This document shows, one piece after another, positions 1 through 43,204 of a stretch of DNA of 43,204 bases. Origin of the DNA: a virus. Location: IMG/VR virus record IMGVR_UViG_3300005843_000005, positions 1 through 43,204 of that record. One strand, 5' to 3'. Position 1 is the stretch's first letter, and each line of letters opens with the position of its first letter. The notes under the pieces were generated by a model. That model did no database searches, had not been told where the DNA came from, and saw only the letters and a program-made list of their open reading frames with translations. The translations under genes were made by a program, and so were the position numbers.

Positions 1-90
1 GGCCGTTCCTTTGACCGCCGCACCCGGAAGTCCTGCGGCTGCGCGAACCTCGCTGGCAGTCTTCGTGCCGGTCAGCTCGCGGGCGATCTG
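1..90. repeat. Left copy of 90-bp terminal overlap
   Basis: These 90 bases are identical to 43115-43204. The same reading frame runs through both copies, so this is best read as the overlap left when a circular molecule is assembled linearly. A true short terminal repeat in the virion is less likely because the repeat lies in the middle of a gene. Confidence 0.95.
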
Positions 91-1995: not shown

Positions 1996-2434
1996 CCGTT
2001 CGATGCCTCTCTACGTGGCAGGACCGGCAGACCCATTCCACGTCGTAGGGTTTTGAATAGTCCTCATGGTGGCCGTGAAGATCGACCATTTCGACCTTCT
2101 CCCCGCAGTCTTCGCAAGCTTCGGGCTTCTGCAAACGGCCTTGGTAGACAGCCACCAGAACGTAGTTGCGAGCTTTCGCTTTCTCCGGATGGCGTTCTGC
2201 GTGACGCCGCTGTTTCTCTCGCTCGTATCCAGGGTTTTCAGTCCGACGTTTCCGGTCACGCTGCGTTCGCCTAGCCCGCACGTCAGACCTTTCGCCGATC
2301 CGCTTGACGAGCGCCCCGTGGCAAACCTTGCAGTCGTTGCGTCGGCCATCTGGCCTCGCAGAATCTCGGTGGAACTCGTCGAGCGGTTTCGTCTCGCCGC
2401 ACTTCGTGCACCGCTTGTAGGCTTGCTCTGGCAT
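1988..2434 (-). CDS. HNH endonuclease with N-terminal zinc ribbon
   Basis: A 148-residue protein. Residues 9-38 hold a CxxC...CxxC zinc ribbon (C9, C12, C35, C38, around KCGETKP). The C terminus has C107/C110, HGHHEDY (about 120-126) and C136/C139 with following His residues, the treble-clef HNH layout. I chose the ATG at 2434 because GGGAGGT precedes it by 8 nt. A GTG at 2524, overlapping the previous stop, is the alternative. The gene sits inside the virion operon and overlaps the next ATG, as expected of a free-standing homing endonuclease. It is clearly paralogous to the plus-strand gene at 8112-8534: both share KCGETKP, ERHP, CEDCG and HHxDYSKP. Confidence 0.85.
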   Translation of the reverse strand: MPEQAYKRCTKCGETKPLDEFHRDSARPDGRRNDCKVCHGALVKRIGERSDVRARRTQRDRKRRTENPGYEREKQRRHAERHPEKAKARNYVLVAVYQGRLQKPEACEDCGEKVEMVDLHGHHEDYSKPYDVEWVCRSCHVERHRTDG

Positions 2435-2520
2435 CGGGGTTACCTCCCGTTGTCCGGCCCCCGGACGTTCCACCGTCGCGGGGGCGCTTTCTTGAAGCTC
2501 CATTATCCCACTTACCGCGG

Positions 2521-6944: not shown

Positions 6945-7564
6945 TAGACGTAGTCCTGGGGCCAGCCAGTGCGGAGCACCTTGCGCTCAACATCCATGTT
7001 CCGTTTGACCAGTGCCTTGTTCATGAGTTCCATGCCAAGGCGCCATTCTTCGCGTACCAGCTTTGCCGCGTCGTAGTTGTCGCGATTGCGATAGGCCCGG
7101 ATCACGGCTCCCTCAACGATCAGCTCCTGGTAGTTGGTCGGGATGATCGGGGTGTCTGACGCCGCGCTGAGGTCGGTAACCACCTTCACGTAGCGGACGA
7201 GGAATTTGGAGGAGGTATCGGCTGGGTAGACCTTCAGCGTGCCTTCGCCCTCCATGTACCAGCGTTCGGCTGCGCCTACGGCTGAGAGGTTGGGGTCGTA
7301 GCCGATCAGCTCCCGCCGGTCTGCGTAGGTGAGCTGTTCGTCATGGGCAAGGTCGGTGACCGAGAGGACATGGCCGAGGTCCGTGAAGGTGATCGGAGCG
7401 GTGCTTTCTTTGTTGGCTTCAAGAAAGGGCCACGGCGCGTAGTCGGCGATCTCCCGCTGGGCGTAGTTCAGCCAGCGTTTAACCCGCGCTTCTTCAGTCG
7501 CGTTGCCACGGAGATCATCGAAGCCGCGGCCGTAGACCTCGCTCATCAGTTCTTCCAGAGTCAT
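6944..7564 (-). CDS. Head-to-tail adaptor (tail tubular protein A-like)
   Basis: A 206-residue protein beginning MTLEELMSEVYGRGFDD, with WLNYAQREIADYAPWPFL at about 31-48. This is the typical N-terminal helical pattern of phage adaptor proteins that dock under the portal. A beta region follows (YVKVVTDLSAASDTPIIPTNYQELIVEGAVIRAYR), with a C-terminal helix that in this family packs on the portal ring. Downstream is the nozzle-like gene. The start overlaps the previous stop (ATGA). Confidence 0.8.
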   Translation of the reverse strand: MTLEELMSEVYGRGFDDLRGNATEEARVKRWLNYAQREIADYAPWPFLEANKESTAPITFTDLGHVLSVTDLAHDEQLTYADRRELIGYDPNLSAVGAAERWYMEGEGTLKVYPADTSSKFLVRYVKVVTDLSAASDTPIIPTNYQELIVEGAVIRAYRNRDNYDAAKLVREEWRLGMELMNKALVKRNMDVERKVLRTGWPQDYV

Positions 7565-16859: not shown

Positions 16860-18416
16860 TTAGCTGTAGCGACCCATGACGGTCTGTTCTCTGGGCTTGG
16901 AGGGTTTGAAGGCCGGGGCGGTGCCGGGAACCCAGCGCTGAGGTGCTACGCGGTTTGGCTTAGTGCGGCGGCTTGGAGCCGTGGGACGTGCCATGGCGAG
17001 GTAGCGCATGACATCTACGAAGTGGTCGTCCTTCTTGACCACGTCAAAGGTCCCGTCCTCTTTGGGGTTCAGGCGGTAGCGGGGGATCTCGCGGAGGAGT
17101 TCCTTGCAGCGAGAGGAGATGCGGAGGAGGGGAAAAGGCTCGCCGTCCTCGTCGCGGTGCTCCATCCGGCGCATCACCTCGAAGACACCGGATTCACGCT
17201 CGTTCTGAGCGGGGAGGACTTTGATCCCGGCCCGTTTATAGGCCCAGTCCACTCGCTCCCCAGAGGTCAGCTCATGGGAGCGGCCGGCCGGGTCGATGAG
17301 GCAGTACTTCGGACGCTCCGGCAGTCCCCATCTATTTCGGGTGGCGCGGATGTCCTCGGCGACATTCTCGGGGATCGTGGCGGGCGTGCCGTGTCTTCCA
17401 AGCTCGTCGTAGATCGTTAGGACGTTGTCTCGGTCCCAGCCGGCGAAAAGAACAGCGGTGGTCTTGTAGCCGGGGTCGATGCCGTCGATCTGTTCGAGCC
17501 CCTTGACGAAATCCTCGTCAATCTCTTTCTCATCGATGACGTGGATCTCGGGATCGAAGTCTGGATAGACAAGACCCTTGAAGTGGGTGTAGTTGCCCGA
17601 TTCGTAGGACGCCCGGACCGCCTCGGGGATTTTCTCCAGGGCTGAGGCGATGCCCTCTTTGGAGAGGTGGGGGTTGTCGTAGATCGAAGCCCGGACGACG
17701 ATCAGTTCCTCATTCAGCCAGACTTCCTTAGCTACTTCGGGTCCCTTTTTGTCCTCGAACTCGTCGTGGGTCCAACCGAGGCCGTGGATCGGCGAGTAGG
17801 TGAAGAGTTCGTCGCCGTTTACCTCAGCCAGGCGCATCGCTCCCTGCCAGCGGATTTCCTCGCCCTTGTCCCCTTTGGGTTCCTCGTCGTAGTGAATCCT
17901 GTGGCGGGTGACGCCGCCGAACTTGTTGACCTCCTGTTCGAGCGTCAAGAAATCAACGAGGGAGCCGTTGGCGAAGTGGAGGATGTGGTCCTTCTCGCGG
18001 AATGCCTTTTCCCAGGACCCCCCTTTCAGTTGGCTTTCAGGGGTCCATTTGCGGAAGGTCTCTAAGACCGAGGCGAAGGAGTGCCCGTAGTCCGGGGTGA
18101 CGATCCTGCAAAGAAAGGGGGGCTCCCAGATCTTCCAGGGCAGGAGGTGCTCGGGGACGATCTCGCGGTCGCAGAGCTGGATCAGGTCATCGCAGACCCC
18201 TGCGGTGGACTTCCCCGCTCTGGTTCCTCCCAAGTAGACGCGGCACTTCAGCGGGTTTTCGTGGAAAGGCCTCTGCTTGCCGTGGGGGAAATACCGCTGC
18301 AGGGGGTTGCGGTCGAGGGATTCAACCGCTTCCTGGAGAAGCTTCTTGACCTCTGGGTCTTCGAGGATGGCGGGATCATCGACCTCGATTGAGAGGCCGG
18401 GAGCTAGCTCGGTCAT
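16860..18416 (-). CDS. terL: Terminase large subunit
   Basis: A 518-residue packaging motor. The ATPase Walker A is GGTRAGKS (63-70), and Walker B is RIHYDEEP (about 173-180), with D177 and E178 as the acid pair. The C-terminal RNase-H-like nuclease shows acidic sites at GIDPGYKTTAVLF (about 305), YCLIDPAGR (about 362) and DDHFVDVMRYLAMA (about 470). It pumps DNA through the portal and cuts concatemers. It starts 3 bp after the upstream stop. It is separated from the small terminase by five genes and 3 kb, which is more than usual. Confidence 0.95.
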   Translation of the reverse strand: MTELAPGLSIEVDDPAILEDPEVKKLLQEAVESLDRNPLQRYFPHGKQRPFHENPLKCRVYLGGTRAGKSTAGVCDDLIQLCDREIVPEHLLPWKIWEPPFLCRIVTPDYGHSFASVLETFRKWTPESQLKGGSWEKAFREKDHILHFANGSLVDFLTLEQEVNKFGGVTRHRIHYDEEPKGDKGEEIRWQGAMRLAEVNGDELFTYSPIHGLGWTHDEFEDKKGPEVAKEVWLNEELIVVRASIYDNPHLSKEGIASALEKIPEAVRASYESGNYTHFKGLVYPDFDPEIHVIDEKEIDEDFVKGLEQIDGIDPGYKTTAVLFAGWDRDNVLTIYDELGRHGTPATIPENVAEDIRATRNRWGLPERPKYCLIDPAGRSHELTSGERVDWAYKRAGIKVLPAQNERESGVFEVMRRMEHRDEDGEPFPLLRISSRCKELLREIPRYRLNPKEDGTFDVVKKDDHFVDVMRYLAMARPTAPSRRTKPNRVAPQRWVPGTAPAFKPSKPREQTVMGRYS

Positions 18417-18419
18417 GGC

Positions 18420-20282
18420 TCAGACGGCGGGTTTGCCGTACTTGGCTTCTAGGGCGGCGAGGGAGGTCCTTAGCGGGTTCCCCTTGGTCGCCTTCGGTTC
18501 TTGGCCGGGTTGGCGAACATTGGCGCCGAGCGAACGCAGCTTCTTAATCCGTTGGTTTCGTTCCTGGCGCACCGTTAGATCCCGACGCCGTTGGACTTTG
18601 CCCTGCTTTCCTTCCTTCGCAGTTCCGGTGCTTGGGGCCGCGACGAGACCGACCGAGGCTGGCGCCGTAGAGGTCGAGGGGGTTGCAGTGGGGCTGGTAG
18701 AGCCCGGAAGAGGGGCGGTTTCCTTGACCTTGATCCAGCCGCCTTTGTACTTCGGCCGGATTACTCCCCAGAGGTCGGAATCGACGGGGTTGCGGTTGAC
18801 CGCGTCGGAGGAGTTGCCAGAGATGTATTCACCGTTACCGACGTAGACGCCGATGTGGCGGTTGCCCCCGTCGCCAAAGGTCAGAAGATCCCCTGGCTTT
18901 GCATCGGCGAGTCCGCCCGAGACAATCGTCGCGTACTTCCCTTCTTCGCCCCAGGTCTGATAGCCAGGAGAGGAGGTGCCGGTGAAGTTCGGGTTCGCGG
19001 GCAATTCGGTGTCGGAAAAGCCACGCCGGATCAATCCGTTGGAGACGAAGTTCGCGCACCAGGGGGTGGTATTGGAGTCTCCGAGGGCAAAGCGCGCGGC
19101 CCAGCGTTCGACTTTCGGCGTTCCCTCTTGAGTGCCAAGAGCCGACTCGGCCCACTTGACCATGCCCTTGGCGTCGGCGCGGACTTTGACCGTCCTTGCA
19201 CCCCCCGGGGCTACGTCGCCCGCCGAGCGGCCCGGACGAAGGCCGAGCTTCTGAGCCTCTTTGACGGCCTGTTTGAGCTGGGCCTTGGCCTTGGGGTTCC
19301 GCTTTTCCCCGACAAGCTCGGAGGTGGCGGCCAGGGCGGGGGCATAGTCGCTCGTAGCCCATCCCGAGTTGCCAATGATCTCCAACTGCTCGGCGACCGA
19401 TTTCCCCTTAGCTTGGGGGAGGATCGCCTTGATGCCCTCGGAAGGGCCGTATTTCTGGCCCTTGAAGAATTCAGCCGTTGCCTTCGCCGCGGACCTCGGG
19501 TTGCTCCAAGTCGGGTCCTGCGTCAGCTCGCCTGGGCCAGAGTCGAAGTAGCCGATATTCAGGGTGTTGAAGTTCCTTTCGGCGTCCCGCTGCGCTGCAT
19601 GCTCGCCGCTCATCTCCTGAAGCTCCTGGGTGGCGACGGTGCGGGGCTTCAGGACGCCGCCCGTTTCCTTGGAGACAAGCTTCGCGATCTTCTTCTGCGA
19701 AGGCGTAAGAGGCCCGGTGACGCCCGTGGTCTTGGCGACGACCCTGCGGGCCTGCTTCACGGCCCTTGAGGCCTGCCGAACCGCTGGAGTCGTCACTGCC
19801 CCCGCTTTATTCACCTTCAGAGCCCCAGCCTGTTTGGCGGTCCGAAGTTCTCCAAGGGTCGGAGTACCGGCGGTTGGTTTGCCCTGGAACTTCGGAGGCT
19901 TGTAGGAAGGTGGTTTCGGTAGCTCGACCGGCTTCACCGTGGGGGCTTTAGGGAGCTTCGGAGGCGCTTCGGCTCTCTGCCGCTTTACGGTCCTAACGAT
20001 CTGCTTTACTCGCCTCTCAGAGCGCTTCTGCTGCCTCACAGCGGCCTTGGCGGCTCTTTCCTTACGAAACCCCGAGGTCGAGACTTTTCCCGTAGGGGAG
20101 ACGGTGACGGTCGGCGCGGTTTCGGCGGTGACTTCCGGCTGCTTCACCGCCCCGGCAGGTGCCGGTCCTTTCCCCTGGAAGGTCTTCTTGACTTCGACCT
20201 TCCCCGAGGGCTGGACCTTTTCCTTGACGGTGGTCGCACCCTTCCCAGGGACATAGGTCGTGTGGCCGGTCCTAGCTGCCAT
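18420..20282 (-). CDS. Virion-associated peptidoglycan hydrolase (CHAP/NlpC-P60-type, possible lysozyme-like second domain)
   Basis: A 620-residue protein. The first 200 residues are basic, Pro- and Lys-rich and disordered. Residues about 200-320 (GEHAAQRDAERNFNTLNIGY; NPRSAAKATAEFF; GNSGWATSDYA) resemble a transglycosylase/lysozyme-type fold, which I hold loosely. Residues about 373-515 form a cysteine peptidase/amidase domain with NTTPWCANFVSNG (C409), AKPGDLLTFGDGGNRHIGVYV (H476 near the end) and GNGEYISGN. The C terminus is again basic. A separate endolysin exists at 37349-38179, so this one likely cuts wall during infection. It sits immediately upstream of terL. Confidence 0.8.
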   Translation of the reverse strand: MAARTGHTTYVPGKGATTVKEKVQPSGKVEVKKTFQGKGPAPAGAVKQPEVTAETAPTVTVSPTGKVSTSGFRKERAAKAAVRQQKRSERRVKQIVRTVKRQRAEAPPKLPKAPTVKPVELPKPPSYKPPKFQGKPTAGTPTLGELRTAKQAGALKVNKAGAVTTPAVRQASRAVKQARRVVAKTTGVTGPLTPSQKKIAKLVSKETGGVLKPRTVATQELQEMSGEHAAQRDAERNFNTLNIGYFDSGPGELTQDPTWSNPRSAAKATAEFFKGQKYGPSEGIKAILPQAKGKSVAEQLEIIGNSGWATSDYAPALAATSELVGEKRNPKAKAQLKQAVKEAQKLGLRPGRSAGDVAPGGARTVKVRADAKGMVKWAESALGTQEGTPKVERWAARFALGDSNTTPWCANFVSNGLIRRGFSDTELPANPNFTGTSSPGYQTWGEEGKYATIVSGGLADAKPGDLLTFGDGGNRHIGVYVGNGEYISGNSSDAVNRNPVDSDLWGVIRPKYKGGWIKVKETAPLPGSTSPTATPSTSTAPASVGLVAAPSTGTAKEGKQGKVQRRRDLTVRQERNQRIKKLRSLGANVRQPGQEPKATKGNPLRTSLAALEAKYGKPAV

Positions 20283-20504
20283 CTAACTAAGGGTCGAGTC
20301 GTAGGTGCTGGGCGGGTACCAGATGACCTGACCGCCCGTGAGATTGCGTTTGGGTTTCCAGTCGCCTTCTCGCAAAATGTTGGATGCGCGCTTCGGCCCG
20401 GCGTTGTCGATCAGACCCGAAGAGATCGGCCGTTCTTGGTCGTAGCGGTGCTCGAAGCGCTGCCACGCCGGGCGAACCGTCCGAGTCTGGCGGCGGACCT
20501 TCAT
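20283..20504 (-). CDS. Small basic protein of unknown function
   Basis: A 73-residue, Arg-rich protein with the start overlapping the upstream stop (ATGA at 20501-20504). Arg, Trp and Tyr are frequent (VRPAWQRFEHRYDQERP). It ends one base before the ATG of the large hydrolase and so is co-translated with it. I recognise no family. Confidence 0.55.
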   Translation of the reverse strand: MKVRRQTRTVRPAWQRFEHRYDQERPISSGLIDNAGPKRASNILREGDWKPKRNLTGGQVIWYPPSTYDSTLS

Positions 20505-20647
20505 GCCTTCCTCGCTTTCCGTTTCTTAGGACGCACCCGCTGGACGTTGGGGACTGCCTTGCCGCCGTACTCGCGGTCCCAGCGCTTTGCCAAAGCTGGC
20601 TCATGGATATGCAGGTAGGCGCGCTGCTTGGCGGACTTGTAGGGCAT
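20501..20647 (-). CDS. Small basic phage protein of the MPYKS...KRWDREYGG type
   Basis: A 48-residue protein starting MPYKSAKQRAYLHIHEPALA and continuing KRWDREYGG, with a Lys/Arg-rich tail. This pattern is common in many phages as a short basic protein near structural or packaging genes; its function is unknown to me. The start overlaps the upstream stop (TGATG) and the end overlaps the next start (ATGA), so it is strongly coupled. Confidence 0.7.
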   Translation of the reverse strand: MPYKSAKQRAYLHIHEPALAKRWDREYGGKAVPNVQRVRPKKRKARKA

Positions 20648-20946
20648 CAGGCTTTCGTTGGGCCGCCGTTGAAGTTGTAGCCGCCGCCTGGGAAACGTTC
20701 CCGTTCACGCTGCCTTTCGCGTTCCCGCTTCCGCTGTTCGCGTTCTTCGCTCGGCGATAGCGGCGTGGCGGGATGATGTTTGGTGCCGTTGTAGCCGTGA
20801 GGCGGGTAGTCCGGCAGTTCCTCGCCACGATAGGTCGGGTTGCCTCGGGCGAGCAGCTTGGGTCCCTTCGCTCCAAGGGTCGGCTTAGGTTCCCGGTGAG
20901 GCTGGGGAAGCGGATACAACTTGACGGGCTGTCGTTTCGCTGGCAC
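20647..20946 (-). CDS. Arg/Glu-rich disordered protein, unknown function
   Basis: A 99-residue protein starting at GTG 20946, with AGGAGG 7 nt upstream and a one-base overlap with the preceding TAG. The first 55 residues are Pro-rich (KLYPLPQPHREPKP). Residues about 68-88 are dense in Arg and Glu (SEEREQRKRERERQRERER) and would form a single charged helix. It ends with a Gly-rich tail. No domain is recognised. Confidence 0.55.
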   Translation of the reverse strand: MPAKRQPVKLYPLPQPHREPKPTLGAKGPKLLARGNPTYRGEELPDYPPHGYNGTKHHPATPLSPSEEREQRKRERERQRERERFPGGGYNFNGGPTKA

Positions 20947-21227
20947 TACGCTGCCTCCTCGCGAGCGGCTGCTTCCGCCCTCTTTGTGGTCATGCCCTCC
21001 GAGTACTTGAAGTGGTTGACGCGCTGGCGGAAGTCGGATGAGAGGGGCTCGGGCGCTACACGTGGTGCTTCTGCCGTTCTGGTGACTACCGGCTGCGCGC
21101 GATGCGCAGAGTCCCGGAGACAACGGTGGCGCAGGAGGTCGGAGAGGCTGATCCCCTCAGCTTTCGCTTCAGCCAGAAGACGCGCTTTCTCCTCAGGCTC
21201 TACTCGCATCTGTATTACAGGCTTCAT
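20946..21227 (-). CDS. Ribbon-helix-helix DNA-binding protein
   Basis: A 93-residue protein with ATG at 21227 behind AAGGAAGAA. Residues 1-40 (KPVIQMRVEPEEKARLLAEA then EGISLSDLLRHRCL) have the strand, helix, Gly-turn, helix of Arc/MetJ/CopG-type ribbon-helix-helix proteins. The C-terminal half is a basic, Ala-rich tail. Upstream are three copies of a TGTATKACAGG repeat (21211-21259), a good candidate operator for self-control. As the first gene after the terminase-side gap, it may govern the late virion operon. Confidence 0.7.
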   Translation of the reverse strand: MKPVIQMRVEPEEKARLLAEAKAEGISLSDLLRHRCLRDSAHRAQPVVTRTAEAPRVAPEPLSSDFRQRVNHFKYSEGMTTKRAEAAAREEAA

Positions 21228-21259
21228 TTCTTCCTTGTATGACAGGGCTGTATGACAGG
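21211..21259. repeat. Three direct repeats TGTATKACAGG: candidate RHH operator
   Basis: TGTATTACAGG (21211-21221), TGTATGACAGG (21236-21246) and TGTATGACAGG (21249-21259) are direct repeats at 25- and 13-bp steps, about two turns and just over one turn of helix. They flank the start codon of the RHH gene. Tandem sites on one face are typical for ribbon-helix-helix dimers. Confidence 0.6.
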
Positions 21260-21519
21260 CGCATTTGTTTCTGAGTTTGTGGTTCAGCGAGGTATATGAG
21301 TACAAGCGCAGCCGCGAGAGTCCGGCCCCTCCTCCCCCCCTCGAACGAATTCCTTTTAGGGCCTTGCGGCCTTCCCGTGTTCGCGATTCGTTCGGGCTGT
21401 GACGCGCTCAGTGACGCAGGCGCTAGGCAAAGGGCTTGAACAAGCCAAAGAGATGCAACGCATCTGGTTGGTGAGCGCGAGCTTGAAGGGCTCGAGGTCG
21501 CTGTCGTACGTGCGTGCGT
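21228..21519. other. Noncoding gap between small terminase and RHH gene, with inverted repeats (possible packaging site)
   Basis: No convincing gene is seen in 292 bp. It holds the RHH operator repeats and a perfect 9-bp inverted repeat, CGAACGAAT (21342-21350) with ATTCGTTCG (21386-21394). Inside that lies a GGCC-GCAA-GGCC hairpin (minus strand, about 21361-21372). There is also a near-palindrome GGCTTGAACAAGCC (about 21434-21447) and a C-rich tract (about 21325-21341). Packaging sites usually lie near the small-terminase gene, so this is the best candidate region for cos/pac; that role is inferred. Confidence 0.4.
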
Positions 21520-22116
21520 TTAGGTTCTGTGCGCGTCTGTCTCGGGCGGTACAGCGCCAGTTACAGCGCCAGTCCCTGAGCCCACACCTAAAGCATCTAC
21601 AGCTTCCTCACCTACGCCAGCCTTATCTGGCAGCACTAAGCCAATCCCACGCTGTTCCAGTGCACGCTTGAGGTTCCCGAAGTCGTTATGCACGATTGAC
21701 GTGGGCTTGCCTGCGAGCACCTGGCTCTTATCCGTATGCACTCCGCCAGCTATGGCTGCTGACTTCAGGATGTTCGCTAGATCCTTGGCGTCTAGCTGCT
21801 CTTCGTCGAGCCTGTTGTGGAGCTGGGTGACAGCCTTGGCCTCTAGCTCTGATGCGGCGTGAGCGAGGGAGAGATGCGTGTCGGCGAGACGGGCGCGCAC
21901 ATGCTGGTCCACTTCGCCTTTGACGCGCTGATAGTCCTCGCGGCGAGATCGATAGGCCCACTCGCGGACAGTGTCTAGGGGGACGTGGCCGAGCCCTTGT
22001 TCCTGAAGCATCGGCTCGACCTTCGCCGCAGCGCCTGACATGAGCGCGTAGATGGCGAGACCCTTGAGGACTTCTTCATCCGTGTATCGCCTAGGGCGCT
22101 TCTGTACTGCGGTCAT
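21520..22116 (-). CDS. terS: Terminase small subunit (putative)
   Basis: A 198-residue protein. Residues 10-65 (RRYTDEEVLKGLAIYALMSG; VPLDTVREWAYRSRREDYQRV) look like a helix-turn-helix that selects DNA. Residues about 70-125 are helical and likely oligomerise (LSLAHAASELEAKAVTQLHN). The C-terminal tail is disordered and carries a 12-bp tandem duplication (ACAGCGCCAGT at 21551 and 21563) encoding TGAV twice. Size and layout fit small terminases of actinophages. It is separated from terL by small genes and the hydrolase. Confidence 0.7.
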   Translation of the reverse strand: MTAVQKRPRRYTDEEVLKGLAIYALMSGAAAKVEPMLQEQGLGHVPLDTVREWAYRSRREDYQRVKGEVDQHVRARLADTHLSLAHAASELEAKAVTQLHNRLDEEQLDAKDLANILKSAAIAGGVHTDKSQVLAGKPTSIVHNDFGNLKRALEQRGIGLVLPDKAGVGEEAVDALGVGSGTGAVTGAVPPETDAHRT

Positions 22117-22325
22117 GGCTGCTCCGGAGAGCAGTAGGCGATTCCAGGGGGCTTAAGGCCACGCTGAGCGTCGCGCTCTTCGGCGGCGATGAAGTACTCG
22201 AAGTCCTTTCGCAACTCAGGGTCTTCAGTGAAGGGTGGGCGGTCGAGGGACGCACGGAGGTCGCTCAAGCGCCTTAGGTGTTCGTGGAACTCGCCTGCTC
22301 CGCATTCCCAATACTCACGGCTCAT
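22113..22325 (-). CDS. Small early/late-junction protein, unknown function
   Basis: A 70-residue acidic protein (MSREYWECGAGEFHEHLRRL, later EDPELRKDFEYFIAAEERDA). The start overlaps the upstream stop as TGATG and the stop overlaps the small terminase start (ATGA). A mostly helical fold is likely. No family is recognised. Confidence 0.6.
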   Translation of the reverse strand: MSREYWECGAGEFHEHLRRLSDLRASLDRPPFTEDPELRKDFEYFIAAEERDAQRGLKPPGIAYCSPEQP

Positions 22326-22537
22326 CACTTCTGCGCTCTCTTAGTCGCTAGGGCTTCGTTCCAGGCTCGCTCGGCTGCTTGCTCCATGATGGAGGCGTTG
22401 TGGTCATCGAGGGAGGTCAATTCCCGAAAGGCGTGCATCGCGGACTCGGGCGGGAAGGGGTTGGGGCGAGAGCACGCCGAGCAGTCACAGCCTGCGGTGG
22501 GCTTGGGCATCCCTGAGGAGCGGCAGAAGCGCGTCAT
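22325..22537 (-). CDS. Small protein with CxCxxC motif, unknown function
   Basis: A 70-residue protein. An N-terminal Cys-rich segment (GCDCSACSRP, about 16-25) could bind zinc. The C-terminal half is a helix (IMEQAAERAWNEALATKRAQ). It is coupled to both neighbours by overlapping stop and start codons. Function unknown. Confidence 0.55.
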   Translation of the reverse strand: MTRFCRSSGMPKPTAGCDCSACSRPNPFPPESAMHAFRELTSLDDHNASIMEQAAERAWNEALATKRAQK

Positions 22538-22719
22538 GCCGTAAGCCTCCCACCAAACTTAGAAGCCAGAACCGAAGTAGGGACAGAGCCCTTGTGGTTC
22601 AGCTTGCAGTTGCTCAAGACCTCTCGGATCTGTTCCTGGGTGTAGGCGGAGTCGTAGACCTTCTTGGTGCCGCCTTGCGTGTAGAGCACGATTCGCTGTT
22701 CTAGGGTCTCTTCGCTCAT
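22534..22719 (-). CDS. Small protein of unknown function
   Basis: A 61-residue protein with a beta start (RIVLYTQGGTKKVYDSAY), then a helix (TQEQIREVLSNCKLN) and a Lys/Ser segment. It resembles small modulators found in actinophage early operons but has no diagnostic motif. It starts at ATG 22719, overlapping the upstream stop (ATGA). Confidence 0.55.
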   Translation of the reverse strand: MSEETLEQRIVLYTQGGTKKVYDSAYTQEQIREVLSNCKLNHKGSVPTSVLASKFGGRLTA

Positions 22720-22934
22720 GGCGCTTCCTCAAGGAGCTCGGCGAACGAGACGGTTCCGAAGACGAATTCCTCATCCCTTGCCTTGATGCAGGCGAAGCAG
22801 CGCTTTGAACCGTTGTAGACGCTCAGTTCCTTGCGGCAGGTAGAGCAGCGCCGGCCCTCTGGAAAGCGCTCGGGCGTCTCTCCGTAGCGAGGGTGCGTTT
22901 CGATTGGCTGGGCTACTGCGAGTTTCGTCTGCAT
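22716..22934 (-). CDS. Zinc-ribbon protein
   Basis: A 72-residue protein with CSTC (about 30-33) and CFAC (about 46-49) separated by a basic turn (RKELSVYNGSKR), the layout of a small zinc ribbon. The C-terminal end is acidic. It is the first gene of a five-gene coupled block ending at the small terminase. The 86-bp gap upstream (22935-23020) has no gene and may hold a promoter, although I see no strong box. Confidence 0.6.
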   Translation of the reverse strand: MQTKLAVAQPIETHPRYGETPERFPEGRRCSTCRKELSVYNGSKRCFACIKARDEEFVFGTVSFAELLEEAP

Positions 22935-23020
22935 GATTCATCGCCGAGGCCGTTAGGGCATGCTGCGGCTGAGGTTCAGGGCTCCAGCGATTTGTATTCG
23001 CCAGTGGGCCTGCGGGAAGT

Positions 23021-23542
23021 CTAGACCGGCGTCTCGGACGAACTTTTGGCCTTTTCGCAGAGACGCTTGAACTCGCCCAGCCATTCGTTGCGCGCCTCGG
23101 GCTTCATGGTCTTCAGCGTCTCGGTGAGTTCGGAGCGTGCCGCTCTCTCCTGGGCGTGCTCAGCTTCGATGCTTCGTTCGTTGCTTTCTGCCATTGAGAG
23201 CCTGCTTTCGATTGCGTAGCGAGTACATGCGTCAGGGTCGAGCACAGGGGCTTGCCAGTCGAGCGAGGAGGCTGCTGAGCGGGTGTAGCCGGCCCCTTTT
23301 GCCATGTAGAGGCCGCGATCGTCTTTAACGGCGTAGAGGGCTTCCCAGTGCTTCGGGTCCTTGCGATGCTTCCCGGTGATGCGGATCGAGATGATCGGCA
23401 CTCGGCCGCCTTGGACTTTCTGCTGACGGACGGGGAGAATTTCGCCGACCTTGAAGGGGCAGCCAGCGGGGCTATGGGGACGCACGATCGTCGGGAACTC
23501 GCCTCGGACTATCGCGCCTCGCTCTTTGGGCTTGAGGTTCAT
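23021..23542 (-). CDS. ASCH/PUA-like protein (tentative)
   Basis: A 173-residue protein. Residues 8-60 (GAIVRGEFPTIVRPHSPAGC; FKVGEILPVRQQKVQ; RVPIISIRITGKHRK) have the beta-barrel order of ASCH/PUA-like RNA-binding domains, where a G-x-K/R motif grips nucleic acid. The C-terminal half is a long helix (SNERSIEAEHAQERAARSEL). It starts at ATG 23542, overlapping the upstream stop by 4 bp. Tentative, as only the fold pattern is visible. Confidence 0.45.
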   Translation of the reverse strand: MNLKPKERGAIVRGEFPTIVRPHSPAGCPFKVGEILPVRQQKVQGGRVPIISIRITGKHRKDPKHWEALYAVKDDRGLYMAKGAGYTRSAASSLDWQAPVLDPDACTRYAIESRLSMAESNERSIEAEHAQERAARSELTETLKTMKPEARNEWLGEFKRLCEKAKSSSETPV

Positions 23543-23880
23543 CGGCGTGCTTTGTTCATCGCGCCTACTTGGAGTTCGTGGGCGGTTGAGGCTCGGGGGT
23601 CTTCGTCGGAGTCATAGGGGTCCACAATGAGGATCACGCGCTCAGGGACCTTCCACGGTGCTCCAGCAACAAGCCGCTCAATATCGCTGGAAAGCCAATG
23701 GTTGAACGCGCCAGCCCAGACTTCCCCGCAGAAGACCTTGCTCCCCGGCGGGTCCATCTCGACCTTGTGGAAGTGCTGCTGGCGCTCCTCGTCGTGCCTT
23801 TCCATGCTTCGATTGAGCACGGCAAGTGCCCGGGGCTCCTCCAAGGTCAGGTAGAGCAGGGCGTCAACGATGTGGCTCAC
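23539..23880 (-). CDS. Early-region protein of unknown function
   Basis: A 113-residue protein starting at GTG 23880 with GGAGCC upstream, overlapping the previous stop (GTGA). It has an N-terminal helix (VSHIVDALLYLTLEEPRALA), then HDEERQQHFHKVE. A central Trp-rich segment follows (GEVWAGAFNHWLSSDIERLV), then a beta strand ERVILIVDPYDSDEDP. I recognise no family. Confidence 0.55.
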   Translation of the reverse strand: MSHIVDALLYLTLEEPRALAVLNRSMERHDEERQQHFHKVEMDPPGSKVFCGEVWAGAFNHWLSSDIERLVAGAPWKVPERVILIVDPYDSDEDPRASTAHELQVGAMNKARR

Positions 23881-24242
23881 TTTGGCTCCTTTCGAGCGTG
23901 GTTGTCCGGCCAAGGCGTGATACCCGGGAGATAGAACCGGCCCGGGCTGATTTCGTGGACGCGGTTCTTCTTTGGCACATCGGGCCATTGATGGGCCTGT
24001 TCGATGAGATAGAGGGCGATCCCGTCCATCGTCTCCGCCAAGAACCTCGCTTCCTTCGGCAGGCCCGGGAAGGCTTGGAAGAAATAGCGGCACTTGGAGC
24101 GAGCCTTGAGAACGAACCACGGTCCATCACCCTCGTCAAAGATCCCGATCTCGGCTTCGGGCAGGCCCTTGCTCTCCAACCACGCTGACGTATAGATCTG
24201 GCGCGCCACCGCTTTCAGAGACTTAACGATTGGCTGCGTCAC
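23877..24242 (-). CDS. Early-region protein of unknown function
   Basis: A 121-residue protein with GTG at 24242, preceded by GGAGGG at 7 nt. Residues 30-70 form a beta-rich core (AEIGIFDEGDGPWFVLKARS; CRYFFQAF). The C terminus has a Trp/Pro-rich tail. It is the first gene after the attP region on this strand and is coupled to the next two genes. Not recognised. Confidence 0.55.
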   Translation of the reverse strand: MTQPIVKSLKAVARQIYTSAWLESKGLPEAEIGIFDEGDGPWFVLKARSKCRYFFQAFPGLPKEARFLAETMDGIALYLIEQAHQWPDVPKKNRVHEISPGRFYLPGITPWPDNHARKEPK

Positions 24243-24389
24243 TGGGCTGCCCTCCGAATCCCGAACAGATTCCGAACATCTGGCTGACAATCAGGGAGAA
24301 ACGCAGGCCAGCGAGGGGGACGCGGGCGAGGTCGTTTGGCTTGAGAGGGCGCATTGCTTCGCCTCTGTTCGCCTGGATTCTCAGCGGAT

Positions 24390-24432
24390 CGAGCTTGGGA
24401 AGCTCGCGCTCTACCAGCTGAGCTACGTCCGC
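24390..24432 (-). other. attP: attP core candidate: 5' half of tRNA-Gly(CCC)
   Basis: Read on the minus strand, 24432-24390 is a flawless tRNA 5' half: acceptor strand GCGGACG, TA, D stem GCTC/GAGC with loop AGCTGGTA, G, and anticodon stem CGAGC/GCTCG around loop TTCCCAA (anticodon CCC, glycine). No variable loop, T arm or matching acceptor strand follows. A tRNA fragment beginning 31 bp beyond the integrase stop is the classic signature of an attachment core. The gap 24243-24462 around it carries no gene. Confidence 0.8.
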
Positions 24433-24462
24433 GCAGAGCCAAATCTAACGCTTTGCTCGCGC

Positions 24463-25596
24463 TCATTGCGCCTCCGCTCCGAACAGATCCCGAACACCCC
24501 GAGCCTCTGCGATGTAGTCCTCGATGCTTCGGCGCTCTGCGGGGTTGGAGTCGATGAGGTGCTGATAGGTCCGCATGGACTCCTGCGGGGAGTGACCGAG
24601 CTGCTGGGCTATCTCGATGTGATTCCAGCCGGCGGCGGCGCAGAGGGTCGCGCAGGTGTGGCGGAGGTCGTAAGGCTTTAGCGTCGAACCGAGCCCCACA
24701 TCTTCGGCGGCCTGCTTGAAGCTGTAGCCCCGCGATCCGTCCGGCCGGATTCGAGAGCGCCAGTTGTCCCAATCGTTCTTCGTCCAAGGCCGGCCGTCTC
24801 TCTTGCCGAAGACGAGTCCAGACGTAAGCGCGGTGTCTTCCCAGGCGCTTAGATCGCCGCTCACGGGCTCGGGAAGGTAGACCGTCCGCTTATATCGGTC
24901 TCCGGTCTTAGATCCAGGGCGAATCTCTCCTCCTGAGTTCTTCTGGATGATCGTCAGGCGCTCTCCGACGTGGGTCCACTCCAGAGCGAGGGCGTCCTGC
25001 GGGCGAATTCCTACGTAGCCAAGCACCGAAATCAGCGTGGCTGAGCCGATGTCCTCTCGCTCAAGAAACCAGACCCGGAGCGCCTCTACCTCGGCTGCCG
25101 TGAGCCAGCGATGATCGCGCTTGCGGTAGCTCGGGCGCCCAAGGGCTAGGGCTGGGTTTACATCGAGATATTCATACGGGAGAACGGCTCGTTTGAGGAT
25201 CTGCGAGAGAAGGGATTGGGCCTTGCCTAGAACCGCCGGCCCTGCGCCTTCTGCAAGCCTCTGGTCTTGCCATTCCTGCAAACGCCGAGGCTTCAGTTCA
25301 GCAACTGAGAGATGCCCTAGCTCGGGGAGGATGTGAACTTCCAGCCACTCCTGATACTTGGCGCGCGTCGAAGCTTCGAGGTCGTTTCGTCCCGCGAGCC
25401 ACTGAGCGGAGAAGATCTCCAGCGTCGGCGCATCCTGGCCCCGGACGAATCCCCTCCCCGCTGCTAGTCGGCGCTCGACCTCAACCTTGAGCGACTGCGC
25501 CTCTGACTTCGTCTTGCAGCTCTTGGACTTCGGCTTCTTGTTCTCCCGCCACTTGACCTCGTAGGTCCCGTGCCTCGTCGGGTGGATTGACGCCAT
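24463..25596 (-). CDS. int: Tyrosine integrase
   Basis: A 377-residue site-specific recombinase. The N-terminal arm-binding domain (1-58) is followed by a SAM-like core-binding domain (about 58-140) and the catalytic domain (about 160-350). The catalytic set is R198 (GIRPQDALAL), a lysine near 230-236 (GSKTGDRYKRTV), Y309..R312 (PYDLRHTCATL, with the first His of HxxR replaced by Tyr, as in many actinophages), H335 (LGHS) and nucleophile Y344 (TYQHL). The start overlaps the stop of the excisionase-like gene (ATGA). The adjacent tRNA-Gly fragment is the probable attP. Confidence 0.95.
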   Translation of the reverse strand: MASIHPTRHGTYEVKWRENKKPKSKSCKTKSEAQSLKVEVERRLAAGRGFVRGQDAPTLEIFSAQWLAGRNDLEASTRAKYQEWLEVHILPELGHLSVAELKPRRLQEWQDQRLAEGAGPAVLGKAQSLLSQILKRAVLPYEYLDVNPALALGRPSYRKRDHRWLTAAEVEALRVWFLEREDIGSATLISVLGYVGIRPQDALALEWTHVGERLTIIQKNSGGEIRPGSKTGDRYKRTVYLPEPVSGDLSAWEDTALTSGLVFGKRDGRPWTKNDWDNWRSRIRPDGSRGYSFKQAAEDVGLGSTLKPYDLRHTCATLCAAAGWNHIEIAQQLGHSPQESMRTYQHLIDSNPAERRSIEDYIAEARGVRDLFGAEAQ

Positions 25597-25883
25597 CAGG
25601 CGCTCCTTTCAAATTGAAGGACTTTGGCGCCGAAGCTACTTTGCCGGCGGGAGCGGGGTCTAGGCATCGGGGACTCGGCTTTCGCTCGTCGCGGCTTTGG
25701 CCCGCTTTCAACCCAGGCGACAAGAGCGGCCTGCGTGGTCACCCAGCGGCCTCCGAGCTTGTGGAAGGGGCTATCGGGCTGAGGGGCGATTCGGTAGAGC
25801 GTGGACTTGCTCCAGGGCGTGCATTCGGCGACCTCCTCAATCGAGAGAATCGCTTCCTCGAGCTGTCTCTCTATCCCCTTCAA
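25596..25883 (-). CDS. xis: Excisionase-like helix-turn-helix protein
   Basis: A 95-residue protein, best started at TTG 25883, which overlaps the preceding TGA and has GAGG upstream. Residues 12-60 (LSIEEVAECTPWSKSTLYRI; FHKLGGRWVTTQAALVAWVE) are a winged helix-turn-helix of the MerR/AlpA/excisionase type. The tail is basic. Position immediately before int in a coupled pair supports a recombination directionality factor. Confidence 0.7.
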   Translation of the reverse strand: MKGIERQLEEAILSIEEVAECTPWSKSTLYRIAPQPDSPFHKLGGRWVTTQAALVAWVESGPKPRRAKAESPMPRPRSRRQSSFGAKVLQFERSA

Positions 25884-26158
25884 GGGTCTGAATCCTCTTG
25901 AGGCTGGGTGGAAAGAGAGGCGAATTGGTCGCGCGCGGCTCGCAGGAGACGGCGCCCTTCGCGGGAGGTCTCGCACTCCTCAGCACTTCGGACCTCGAGC
26001 CAGTACATGCCTCGGAAGTCGCCGTAGAGGCGCGTGAACTCCTCCATCGCCTGCTCGCTGCCAGCAGCGACAACAAGGCCGGGCGTGCTCGGTTCGTCGG
26101 CGTAGCCCTCGCCTTCGTCGTGCCAAGGCTGAACGACCCACTCCCTCTCTTGGGTCAT
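25880..26158 (-). CDS. Early-region protein of unknown function
   Basis: A 92-residue acidic protein. It opens with an aromatic segment (REWVVQPWHDEGEGYADEPS), then a helix (EQAMEEFTRLYGDFRGMYWL) and a charged end. It overlaps the excisionase-like start, so the two are co-translated. No motif permits a functional call. Confidence 0.5.
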   Translation of the reverse strand: MTQEREWVVQPWHDEGEGYADEPSTPGLVVAAGSEQAMEEFTRLYGDFRGMYWLEVRSAEECETSREGRRLLRAARDQFASLSTQPQEDSDP

Positions 26159-26416: not shown

Positions 26417-26788
26417 TCAGGTCTCCTCGTTCAGTTGGGAGCAGATGTGAGCAATCACGCTCTCGTAAGCAGCGAGCGCGCCTTCGTCCGTCTCGTTCGC
26501 CAGCCCTTCGTGCGGTTTCTCGTCTTCGCAGAACCGAAGCAGCTCTCTAAGCGCTCCTTCTCCTTCGATTACCTGCTGGGTCAACTCCTCGACGCGCTTC
26601 CGCCATCCCGGGATAGCGGCTTCGAGCTGAGCGACCCTCTCCTCCGGGGTCATGAGACCCGGCCCCTGTCCTTCTACTTTGTGGGCGGCTTCGAGGGCGA
26701 GGCGCACCCAGGCGGGCTCAACCGCCGGCAAGTACTTGAGAAGCTCGTAAGTCGCGGCTCCTACTTGCTCATCCGAGATTTCAGCCAC
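26417..26788 (-). CDS. Early-region helical protein of unknown function
   Basis: About 123 residues from GTG 26788, overlapping the HNH gene end by 8 bp; GTG 26797 is an alternative, since AGGAGG lies 12 or 3 nt away respectively. Mostly helical (EERVAQLEAAIPGWRKRVEE; ALAAYESVIAHICSQLNEE), with a coiled-coil centre. No family is recognised. The long upstream reading to 26938 is only a shadow of the HNH gene. Confidence 0.55.
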   Translation of the reverse strand: MAEISDEQVGAATYELLKYLPAVEPAWVRLALEAAHKVEGQGPGLMTPEERVAQLEAAIPGWRKRVEELTQQVIEGEGALRELLRFCEDEKPHEGLANETDEGALAAYESVIAHICSQLNEET

Positions 26789-27215
26789 GGTAACCACCGG
26801 CCTCCTCGATGGCGACGACTGCTTCGCTCTCGGCTTTGAACCGGCCCAAGAGCTGACGCTTGCCGTTGCGTTTGACCCATGCCGAGTACTTCCCGATGGA
26901 GCCTTCCCAGCTGACGCCGAGATGCGGAGACGCACCATGGCTGCTGATGTGGTCCTCTTTCGACAGGGCTTCTAGGTGCTCCGGGTTGACACAGAGCCTG
27001 TTTTCGCAGCGGTGGTGGACCTCGTGCCCTCTCGGGATCGGACCAACGTGGTGTTCGTAGTAGACGCGGTGCGCTCGCAGGTAGCCACCTCCGGTCGTGC
27101 AGATTCGCCCATACCCTCCGGTTACCAAGGACTTCAGCCAGATCCAGCAGCCCGTCTCCGGATCGACGGCGTAGTCCGGCTTCCGTTTCTTAGCTGGCAG
27201 CTCACTCACTGGCAT
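26781..27215 (-). CDS. HNH endonuclease with AP2-like DNA-binding tail
   Basis: A 144-residue protein with ATG 27215 behind GGAGGACCCAC. The HNH_3-type core is YLRAHRVYYEHHVGPIPRGH (46-65), then EVHHRCENRLCVNPEHLEAL (about 65-84), with H67/H68, N77 and H80. Residues 99-137 (LGVSWEGSIGKYSAWVKRNG; RQLLGRFKAESEAVVAIEE) match the AP2-domain pattern often fused to homing HNH nucleases. It sits in an early operon and overlaps both neighbours. Third of four HNH genes here. Confidence 0.85.
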   Translation of the reverse strand: MPVSELPAKKRKPDYAVDPETGCWIWLKSLVTGGYGRICTTGGGYLRAHRVYYEHHVGPIPRGHEVHHRCENRLCVNPEHLEALSKEDHISSHGASPHLGVSWEGSIGKYSAWVKRNGKRQLLGRFKAESEAVVAIEEAGGYRG

Positions 27216-27414
27216 GTGGGTCCTCCAGGATGGCTTGCAGGCGGTCGGAGGCATCAGCGAGAAGCTGCGCCGCGTCGCCCTCGTCTCGTATGTAGAGACA
27301 GCAAAGGTCGTCCAGTAGCTCCACCTCAGCCCGCAGACGGTCTTCTAGGGCTTCCCGTTTGGCAATCTCGGCGTTCCCTTGGCGTAGCAGCCACTCAATT
27401 CGGTCGTCAGCCAT
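27202..27414 (-). CDS. Small coiled-coil protein
   Basis: A 70-residue protein with ATG 27414 behind GGGAGGCTCCG. Nearly all helical and acidic (RIEWLLRQGNAEIAKREALE; ELLDDLCCLYIRDEGDAAQL). Its start lies inside the end of the 48-residue zinc-finger gene (8-bp overlap) and its stop inside the HNH gene start. No known family. Confidence 0.55.
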   Translation of the reverse strand: MADDRIEWLLRQGNAEIAKREALEDRLRAEVELLDDLCCLYIRDEGDAAQLLADASDRLQAILEDPHASE

Positions 27415-30711: not shown

Positions 30712-31395
30712 TCATGCTCGGGCTTCCCGTTCTTCCCGAATGAAGCGCCGCGCCTGTTCAGCGGATTCGGCTCCGGTCTCGGGATAGCGTTCGTCAAGCC
30801 AGCCGGGAGTGGCGAGGGAGGAGACGCATTCCCACTCGACCTCGGTCATAAGCTCGCGGGGGATGGCAATGCCTCGACGGTGCCAGCTCATATGGCAGGA
30901 GTTGCAGAGCGGCATCCCGTTATTGATGTCGTCGCGCCCCTTGATTGCTTTCGAGCGCGGGACCATGTGATGGAGGTGAAGTTCTCGGTTCGTCTCGCAG
31001 ACCCGGCAGCATTCCTCGCCCTTTACCTTCAGCGAGAATTTGCTGCGGCGGGCGCGATTTCCGTAGAGACCGCCCTTGAAGTTCGGGTTGCCGTTGCCTC
31101 GCCGGCTAGTGCTCCATTCATTCGACTTCGCTTCTTTCGGCCCCCTCTCAACTGCTGGATCAGCGTGGTAGCACTCCGGTGAGCAGTATTTCTGGCCTCG
31201 CCCCATGCGGGATGGTCGAATAGCAAGCTCCTTACCGCAAACCCGGCACTTCAGCCTTGGCCGCTTGTCGAGCTTCGCTTCGTAGCCGCATTTGCGAGAG
31301 CAGAACAACTGCGTGTACGTCTTGTGATCATGGAGAGCGACAAAGACTTCTCTGCACCACGCGCACTCCCGCTCGATTCCCTTGACCCGTGGCAT
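30712..31395 (-). CDS. HNH endonuclease with zinc fingers
   Basis: A 227-residue protein from ATG 31395. Two N-terminal Cys pairs (CAWC..CSRKC; CRVCG..CSPEC) form zinc fingers (about 12-80). A NUMOD3-like stretch, GNGNPNFKGGLYG, follows at about 100-112. The HNH core ECCRVCETNRELHLHHMVPR and NNGMPLCNSCHMSWH lies at about 128-175, with the paired His and terminal CxxCH. It is a free-standing homing-type nuclease in an early operon. Its start overlaps the 29-residue peptide stop (TAATG). Confidence 0.85.
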   Translation of the reverse strand: MPRVKGIERECAWCREVFVALHDHKTYTQLFCSRKCGYEAKLDKRPRLKCRVCGKELAIRPSRMGRGQKYCSPECYHADPAVERGPKEAKSNEWSTSRRGNGNPNFKGGLYGNRARRSKFSLKVKGEECCRVCETNRELHLHHMVPRSKAIKGRDDINNGMPLCNSCHMSWHRRGIAIPRELMTEVEWECVSSLATPGWLDERYPETGAESAEQARRFIREEREARA

Positions 31396-31484
31396 TACTG
31401 CTCCACTCCAAAGGTTCCGCAGACCACGCACCTCTGTTCCTTCTTGGCCAGCGTCTCTTCGGGCCAGATGCGTTCCTTAGCCAT
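31395..31484 (-). CDS. 29-aa CxxC peptide
   Basis: ATG 31484 to TAA 31395. It carries CVVCG near its end and a Lys/Glu-rich helix before it. It is linked by one-base overlaps to the mIHF-like gene (TGATG) and to the HNH gene (TAATG), so it would be translated by coupling. A real gene is plausible but unproven. Confidence 0.4.
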   Translation of the reverse strand: MAKERIWPEETLAKKEQRCVVCGTFGVEQ

Positions 31485-42500: not shown

Positions 42501-43204
42501 GCCTCATGCCTGATCCCGGCAATGCGGTCGCCTTCCTCGATTTCGGCGCCGCGTTTTGCTCGGTCAACCGTGTGGGCGCCCTGTTTGCGGTAGTTGCTAC
42601 CGGCGAAGACCTTGGCCCCCTCACCTCTCGCATCGAGTCCGAGTCGGCCGTTCGCGCGCTTGCGGGTCTTCTCTGCGACCTTGCGGACCTGGCTGACGAT
42701 TGAATCCGCAATCGAAGCGTCTCCCTTGCCGAGGCGGTCAGCCAGGGCTTTCCCCCCGAGACCGAGGGTGATCGGAATGATCAGGCCCAGTTCGTTTTCA
42801 ACCGCCTTCTGAACGGCGTCTGAATCCCCCGAGGTGACGACGTGGCCGACCTCTCGAGCAAAGTCGAGCTGGCTCTTGCCGACGTACTTGACGGGAGCCA
42901 GGATCTCCTTCCCGGAATACTCTTTGAAGCCCGGGACTCCGATGTCATGGAGGCCCGTAGAGGCCGCACGGCCGGGCGTAAGGGCGACGTTGACTCCAAG
43001 GCCCACGGGAACCGTCACGAAGCCGGGGAGGGCGCGAGCGGTAGTCCCCAGCGTTTTGCCCGGGTTCTCGGTCAGCGCCTTCTCATGGCCCCTGACAACG
43101 GCAGTCGCTTGGGCGGCCGTTCCTTTGACCGCCGCACCCGGAAGTCCTGCGGCTGCGCGAACCTCGCTGGCAGTCTTCGTGCCGGTCAGCTCGCGGGCGA
43201 TCTG
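39527..43204 (-). CDS. Giant internal virion/ejection protein, C-terminal part (residues 277-1471 across the circle)
   Basis: Runs on from 1-828 through the duplicated end. In the joined protein, residues about 300-325 are hydrophobic (GFVTVPVGLGVNVAL). Residues about 330-760 are helical and charged. Residues about 930-1300 contain well-defined stretches (NTSPAWAITQFGAEYAQAAI; RTVDQWKGSRIRTLSALAKM; YPFLRMSLKWTFNTFPKN; HPIRAAASYWVAQQNANELH) typical of one large folded ejection protein. The C-terminal 100 residues are coiled coil. No lysozyme or polymerase motif was found. It takes about a tenth of the genome. Confidence 0.75.
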   Translation of the reverse strand, partial: QIARELTGTKTASEVRAAAGLPGAAVKGTAAQATAVVRGHEKALTENPGKTLGTTARALPGFVTVPVGLGVNVALTPGRAASTGLHDIGVPGFKEYSGKEILAPVKYVGKSQLDFAREVGHVVTSGDSDAVQKAVENELGLIIPITLGLGGKALADRLGKGDASIADSIVSQVRKVAEKTRKRANGRLGLDARGEGAKVFAGSNYRKQGAHTVDRAKRGAEIEEGDRIAGIRHEASRAARDEPVHPTGRQTAAETDLHVQPRDAVRFLVAHDINLDAPHELVIGEIRRLKKKLESDREAMGLPKQRSAKEKRDTLDTEDIFNALDQHPEWLKRDSLKRIVKAAREQEKESRLDRANKDHSEAARWEPSAIDLGVPTRHERVPIPERARFGGAKTWDEASINLAKDLQEHKRLVGRAKEEVRVAKSRLISGDPVTKEFYDRALDYQRRVQKMGDVLKARRREVRRGMDRGNRHADPELEAEMIAETKAAAEAHPVRNAEPEWTSEIYRQTDRPMQGVAGAKMPGGIKTRSGDAVRLGSPEEGLHSYLQHSITVPVHRKHIYGSIGQDLDRLQYKEGDKVKFTMPEVEARFKGSDSHLNYQNFDIVPDQLVKRIDDWRERGAKRDQQDYVSAEQLVSELANLVHSPDVEWSKGKATQGRTYRIVPKEWMKEVFESFRPADSRAQQVGRALNKTSNYLILNTSPAWAITQFGAEYAQAAIANPKLLNPLYARKLAKAYKAMDPVVRREFDTWVGATKRDLDWASREPLSMKGADDAYKVLDRTPYGRFFRGIPTTLRTVDQWKGSRIRTLSALAKMDKDFNGHLNQFLLGSGKMYRLQKEYSSKLRGKSPAEIAEFVTRNPALQERYRTYLDDMMGNWTALSKREQTLSQLVIFYPFLRMSLKWTFNTFPKNHPIRAAASYWVAQQNANELHHLLKGDPSFFGYWGNVPLYTSEHPTMELPLARLGLSGNALVEALGGSLENTEGPPLAALALSVTQPAITAGVRGITGLNKFTGEQEPHSGVGALNEVIGLSSLSRAGEKVKEALTGTTPAEGAPNLFGATKRQTSLDRLFAKLRGPLTSSVIRSTVFPGVPSSIELERDSGHLSRILTKLGETGEDAHNELKDRYREEGKSGVEAARAEEKLWHEYDKANKGLDKLFKKYGIDTRKEDAEYERFEEERKIGPQTPLQRAESILEGKTNPKLKKAEEALDGAKNPALEKAEKALGLE
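43115..43204. repeat. Right copy of 90-bp terminal overlap
   Basis: Identical to 1-90 and in frame within the giant virion gene. It should be removed once when the sequence is circularised, giving 43,114 bp. Confidence 0.95.

What the first reader, a model, noticed from the sequence alone, without database searches (positions are those of the whole stretch)
24390..24462. attP core is the 5' half, not the 3' half, of a tRNA-Gly(CCC)
Seen: perfect acceptor, D arm and anticodon arm, with nothing resembling a T arm after it, 31 bp from the integrase stop. Known: most tRNA-using phages carry the 3' half to restore the gene. A 5'-half attP would make the prophage supply the tRNA's 5' end and its promoter. 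This also names the host target site.
Basis: partly seen in the sequence, partly recalled or inferred. Interest (0 to 1): 0.8.

Follow-up and report, generated by a model that had tools for sequence, protein, structure and literature searches.

The report
Phage attP carrying a tRNA 5' half
This soil-actinobacterium phage inserts into a glycine tRNA gene and rebuilds it by supplying the front half and what looks like its promoter, the reverse of the usual arrangement in which the phage supplies the back half; the arrangement is rare but already known, and close relatives of its integrase use the opposite polarity.

Summary
Window 24432-24390 (minus) is exactly nt 1-43 of an actinobacterial tRNA-Gly(CCC), 30 bp beyond the integrase stop. 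The phage has no full tRNA and no 3' half. The window is a circular phage genome (90-bp terminal repeat), so this is attP. The 43-mer identifies hosts: 39 genome contigs, nearly all Solirubrobacterales/Thermoleophilia, 38 with a complete tRNA-Gly(CCC). Relatives show integrase plus complete tRNA-Gly(CCC) plus host genes (L007), a half-tRNA junction (L002), and a decayed remnant with both ends (L023). Another relative gives a clean pair in one genome (G043, tRNA-Val GAC): host promoter, 43-nt 5' half, phage at one end; integrase, complete tRNA, host at the other. Alignments to an empty site stop at the edges of those 43 nt. Paired TGTTCGG repeats flank the core at conserved distances from the anticodon. 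A -10-like box sits where host tRNA promoters have theirs. The 5'-half class is known but rare (Islander: 159 of 3919 islands; archaeal pTN3). New here: a 52%-identical integrase (L086) carries the opposite, 3'-half core with the same arm geometry, so core polarity has flipped at least once. Recombination and promoter activity are inferred.

The parts
24390..24432 (-). attP core: nt 1-43 of tRNA-Gly(CCC) (5' acceptor strand, D arm, whole anticodon arm)
24395..24401 (-). anticodon loop TTCCCAA, the inferred 7-bp strand-exchange region
   Evidence: sequence; inferred from the 38- to 40-nt cores of L087 and L023 and from the arm geometry
24402..24406 (-). 5' strand of the anticodon stem (CGAGC), inferred left core-type integrase site
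   Evidence: sequence; inference
24390..24394 (-). 3' strand of the anticodon stem (GCTCG), inferred right core-type integrase site
   Evidence: sequence; inference
24442..24447 (-). -10-like hexamer TAGATT, 15 nt before the tRNA start: inferred promoter supplied to the rebuilt tRNA
24479..24496 (-). P-arm pair of TGTTCGG sites, 11 bp apart, inside the 3' end of the integrase gene
24261..24278 (-). P'-arm pair of TGTTCGG sites, 11 bp apart
24463..25596 (-). tyrosine integrase, 377 aa
   Evidence: Pfam PF00589 E=1.7e-10; PHROG 1 integrase E=1e-51
25596..25976 (-). HTH protein, probable excisionase, directly upstream of and overlapping the integrase
   Evidence: PHROG 66 excisionase E=8.8e-8; homologues beside the relatives' integrases
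1..90 (.). direct terminal repeat, left copy (assembly overlap of a circular genome)
43115..43204 (.). direct terminal repeat, right copy

Best explanation
The feature is the attP core of a temperate tailed phage of Solirubrobacterales-type actinobacteria. The phage integrase exchanges strands in the anticodon loop of the single-copy host tRNA-Gly(CCC) gene, using the two halves of the anticodon stem as core sites and paired TGTTCGG repeats as arm sites. After integration the integrase side carries phage 5' half plus host 3' half, a complete tRNA gene now read from phage DNA. The far side keeps the host promoter and an orphan host 5' half that runs into the prophage. Shown by sequence: attP identity, the target gene, attL/attR/empty-site anatomy in relatives, and the arm repeats. 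Inferred: the crossover position, arm-site function, promoter use, and that this particular phage integrates as its relatives do.
For: Exact 43-mer in a circular phage genome with no 3' half. Three related phages, L005 and L006 (integrase 94%) and L085 (60%), carry the matching 43-nt half with diverged flanks. L007 (70%): integrase, complete tRNA-Gly(CCC), host genes. L002: 5' half then phage with the P' arm pair. L023: 40-nt half, 2.8 kb, decayed integrase, complete tRNA. G043: attL and attR of tRNA-Val(GAC), whose alignments to the empty site G046 end at the 43-nt core edges, while the joined flanks align throughout; the DNA beyond attL encodes terminase, portal, head and tape-measure proteins. 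Identity runs 26 nt past the anticodon stem on the 5' side and 0 on the 3' side, as expected if the phage must restore the 5' part. All four minus-strand TGTTCGG sites of the window lie at -98/-87 and +120/+131 from the anticodon.
Against: No integrated copy of this exact phage or its 94% relatives was found. The clean two-ended case is tRNA-Val on two contigs of one metagenome-assembled genome. In L002 the host flank lies inverted relative to L023. No experiment was done. The -10-like box is missing in the tRNA-Val relatives.
Confidence: 0.93

Rival explanations
1. The half tRNA is a relic (a captured or decaying tRNA gene, or a source of a tRNA-derived RNA) and is not the attachment site.
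For: No experiment shows recombination here; tRNA fragments do occur in phages.
Against: The 43 nt are conserved in related phages whose flanks have diverged, lie in the usual att position by the integrase, are flanked by arm-type repeats at conserved spacing, and the equivalent halves mark the real prophage ends in G043 and L023.
Confidence: 0.03
2. The phage disrupts the tRNA and complements it with its own complete tRNA (tRNA-dependent lysogeny, as in Fionnbharth).
For: Actinobacteriophages do this (PMC10865867).
Against: No complete tRNA in the window; the core is 43 nt, not about 10; L007 and G043 have a rebuilt tRNA.
Confidence: 0.01
3. Integration is as described, but the rebuilt tRNA is read through from the integrase promoter rather than from a promoter next to the core (a variant of the best explanation, not exclusive of it).
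For: The core lies 30 bp behind the integrase stop on the same strand; archaeal pTN3 tRNAs are described as expressed from the integrase promoter (PMC8371274); the tRNA-Val relatives lack a TANNNT box.
Against: A -10-like hexamer lies at -15/-14 in all four Gly-CCC cases, inside the range of host tRNA promoters (-14 to -21 in 32 of 36 hosts); integrase is usually silent in a lysogen (general knowledge).
Confidence: 0.3

Closest known systems
tDNA-integrated islands with a displaced 5' tDNA fragment (Islander: 159 of 3919 islands; PMC4383910)
   Same: Tyrosine integrase, complete tRNA at one end and a 5' fragment in the same orientation at the other; anticodon-centred crossover is one of the two site classes there.
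   Different: A complete free phage with its attP, in uncultured Solirubrobacterales; this study also shows the arm repeats, the probable carried -10 box and relatives of opposite polarity.
pTN3-like integrases of Thermococcales (PMC8371274, PMC5495485)
   Different: pTN3 integration splits the integrase gene; here attP lies 30 bp outside the integrase reading frame. Archaea, not bacteria.
Classical 3'-half tRNA phages of actinobacteria (for example Omega, 44-bp core; PMC10865867) and the 3'-half relatives found here (L086, L056, L089)
   Same: Tyrosine integrase beside attP; core of about 44 bp; in L086 the same arm repeats and spacing.
   Different: The other half of the tRNA is supplied and the host promoter is kept.
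tRNA-dependent lysogeny (Fionnbharth, LeBron; PMC10865867)
   Same: Integration at an actinobacterial tRNA gene by a tyrosine integrase.
   Different: That system does not rebuild the tRNA and supplies a complete one; neither applies here.

Membership tests
5'-fragment tDNA islands (Islander class) | Tyrosine integrase in the element | tested here: met
   PF00589 and PHROG 1
5'-fragment tDNA islands (Islander class) | Element carries a terminal 5' fragment of the target tRNA gene | tested here: met
   nt 1-43, exact
5'-fragment tDNA islands (Islander class) | Integrated form: complete tRNA at one end, 5' fragment in the same orientation upstream at the other | tested here: met
   Met in relatives G043 and L023; no integrated copy of the window phage itself was found
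pTN3-like 5'-half integrases | attP lies within the integrase gene, which integration splits | tested here: not met
   Core is 30 bp beyond the stop codon; the integrase stays whole in L007 and G043
[quoted passage not shown]
   No 3' half in the window at up to 3 mismatches
tRNA-dependent lysogeny | Phage encodes a complete cognate tRNA and shares only a short core | tested here: not met
   No tRNA gene; 43-bp core
Tyrosine-integrase attP with arm-type sites | Arm-type repeats on both sides of the core that bind integrase | tested here: inconclusive
   Repeats present at conserved spacing on both sides; binding not testable here

The most novel reading that the evidence does not exclude
One integrase family switches which half of a tRNA its phages carry by inverting the core about the anticodon centre while integrase and arm sites stay in place. 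The anticodon stem-loop is nearly its own reverse complement (Y-U-N-N-N-R-A loop, palindromic stem), so the enzyme need not change. L086 (3' half of tRNA-Thr CGT) has arms at -109/-98, -64 and +121/+132 from the anticodon; G043 (5' half of tRNA-Val GAC) has them at -109/-98, -62 and +122/+133. A consequence is that in 5'-half lysogens an orphaned host tRNA promoter reads a half tRNA straight into the prophage's left-end genes.
Probability: 0.55. Interest if true: 0.6.

Novelty: new member of a known kind. Interest (0 to 1): 0.45.

Why it matters
It names a target gene and host group for a group of uncultured soil phages and gives an attP with mapped probable arm sites. It also gives a natural comparison, 52% identical integrases with mirror-image tRNA cores and the same arm spacing, that would let one test how an integrase module sets polarity. 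Host tRNA genes that pass through such phages would exchange their promoter as well as half their sequence.

Tried and rejected
Rfam tRNA hit: sub-threshold, with a chance 3' acceptor match and no T arm. RNA folding of the region: no better than shuffles, z -0.93. tblastx between phages: too noisy to use. Integrase search in the 37 genomes that hold the tRNA gave nothing at 1e-50, so the order and class were searched instead. Annotated phages: integrase relatives only at about 28% identity or less among those listed, and no close DNA match for 16860-24900. A single origin of 5'-half use is disfavoured by the tree (at least 2 changes; L086 groups with L085 at 91/91) but not rejected by the AU test, p = 0.074, so a second flip is stated as probable only. 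L002's flank could not be aligned to explain its inverted order. The GGCTCT motif before the core was first taken for part of a promoter; it also precedes 3'-half cores, so it is more likely an att element.

Full report
What is there. Window 24432-24390, minus strand, is the 43-mer GCGGACGTAGCTCAGCTGGTAGAGCGCGAGCTTCCCAAGCTCG, present once. It is the 5' acceptor strand, D arm and complete anticodon arm of a tRNA-Gly(CCC). It begins 30 nt beyond the stop of a 377-aa tyrosine integrase at 24463-25596; an excisionase-like HTH gene at 25596-25976 precedes the integrase. ARAGORN finds no tRNA in the window and no tRNA-Gly(CCC) 3' half is present. The window ends in a 90-bp direct repeat, so it is a circular phage genome of about 43.1 kb and the site is attP, not an integrated junction. 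It has terminase, portal, head and endolysin genes.

Which gene it comes from. A two-fold degenerate form of the 43-mer was found in 39 genome contigs, nearly all titled Solirubrobacterales, Thermoleophilaceae or Thermoleophilia. In 38 of them it is the start of a complete tRNA-Gly(CCC); in L040 the contig ends within the gene. The exact window sequence is in L042, L045 and L048. In 232 genomes of the order, 61 have a match at up to 2 mismatches and each has exactly one, so the gene is single copy by this test.

Integrated relatives. L007 (IMG/VR 3300043481_000001, integrase 70% identical) reads: integrase stop, 42 nt, complete tRNA-Gly(CCC), then a winged-helix gene on the other strand and a 955-aa exported-looking protein. 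The same order of tRNA, winged-helix gene and that protein is found without an integrase in L027, L034 and L015, so these are host genes. L002 (3300005539_000186) shows the other junction: a host-like TAGAAT box, the 43-nt half, then phage DNA with a terminase further on. L023, a Solirubrobacterales contig, has both ends of a decayed element: 5' half of 40 nt at 4466-4505, integrase fragments at about 6674-7224, complete tRNA from 7267.

The cleanest case uses another tRNA. G043 has an integrase 52% identical, followed by a complete tRNA-Val(GAC) on contig C30. Its contig C46 has a 43-nt 5' half of the same tRNA after a host-like promoter. BLAST of each junction against the undisturbed locus of G046 stops at the core: the attL alignment ends at base 1543, where the core spans 1501-1543, and the attR alignment begins at base 1500. 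The two flanks joined align to the empty site over 1.4 kb. C46 beyond the half encodes methyltransferase, terminase, portal, head and tape-measure proteins. Its portal and head proteins fall in other PHROG families than the window's, so the integration module is shared by different tailed phages.

Anatomy and mechanism. Each half of the anticodon stem is an obvious core-type site around a 7-bp loop, the normal layout for tyrosine integrases at tRNA genes (described in PMC8371274). Shared sequence extends 26 nt past the stem on the 5' side and none on the 3' side. In L087 and L023 identity stops at 38 and 40 nt, so the crossover must lie at or before the loop end. Pairs of TGTTCGG, 11 bp apart, flank the core: -98/-87 and +120/+131 from the middle anticodon base in the window, L005 and L006, with one-base variants at the same places in L085; -110/-99 and -63 in L007; -109/-98, -62 and +122/+133 in G043; +120/+131 in L002. 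All four minus-strand copies of the motif in the window are these. They are probably integrase arm sites; that is inference.

Promoter. 32 of 36 host genes have TANNNT starting 14-21 nt before the tRNA. The window (TAGATT), L085 (TAGTTT) and the remnant L023 (TAAAAT) have one at -15 and L007 (TAGGAT) at -14; the chance per case, measured on the phage genome, is about 1.5%. The two tRNA-Val relatives lack it there. So for the Gly-CCC phages a carried -10 box is likely; read-through from integrase is the rival.

Polarity. Among relatives, the window group, L007, L085, L087 (tRNA-Val TAC; its 38 nt match host genes with 1 mismatch) and G043 carry 5' halves. L086 (52%), L056 (49%) and the more distant integrases with a neighbouring tRNA have the tRNA reversed, 3' end towards the integrase. 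L086 is a free attP with the 3' half of tRNA-Thr(CGT) and arms at -109/-98, -64 and +121/+132, the same geometry as G043 and L007 with the core turned round. On the integrase tree 3'-half use is outside and 5'-half use inside; L086 sits beside L085 at 91/91, which needs at least two changes, but a single-origin tree is not rejected (p-AU 0.074). At least one flip is therefore well supported and a second is probable.

Comparison with the known. Islander counted 159 of 3919 islands with a 5' fragment (PMC4383910). Archaeal pTN3 carries a 5' half and rebuilds the tRNA away from its promoter, and a similar situation is called seldom encountered in bacteria (PMC8371274, PMC5495485). So the kind is known. 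The phage differs from pTN3 in keeping its integrase whole. It is not a case of tRNA-dependent lysogeny (PMC10865867).

Verdict. The observation and its interpretation are right, with small corrections. It is a new member of a rare known class. The mirror-image relatives are the more interesting lead.

Noticed in passing
L012 5870-5930: This host has no integrase here, but its tRNA-Gly(CCC) is preceded by GTTCGGGATGGCTCTAGGATTGGCCCAC, nearly the L007 phage sequence (19 of the last 20 bases). It may be the scar of a lost prophage that left its promoter behind.
   Followed up: partly
L051 530-1090 (contig of L002): The winged-helix gene and exported-protein gene lie upstream of the 5' half and inverted, whereas in L023 and L007 they lie downstream of the tRNA. 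A local inversion at the tRNA, a different host order or a misassembly are all possible.
   Followed up: partly
window 24433-24445 and the matching place in L007, L085, L087, L086, L056, L089: A TGGCTCT-like motif lies next to the core on the integrase side (as its reverse complement in L089), whatever the core's polarity; it is probably an att element.
   Followed up: partly
L086 2760-2840: The phage DNA beyond the 3'-half core is itself tRNA-like enough for ARAGORN to call a 79-nt tRNA-Thr(CGT); it may be a decayed old half or chance.
   Followed up: no
G043 C46 23425 onward (L165) and window 24389 downwards: After integration an orphan host tRNA promoter and half tRNA would read into the prophage's left-end genes; in G043 these are two small genes and a DNA methyltransferase.
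   Followed up: no
window 1988-2524, 26781-27254, 30712-31431: Three proteins with HNH-like Cys/His motifs (by eye, no family search done), suggesting several homing-type endonucleases in one phage.
   Followed up: no
L080 2747-3763 (G046 C79): An integrase 59% identical over 301 residues that lacks the N-terminal part and has no tRNA or tRNA half nearby; it is probably a remnant.
   Followed up: no
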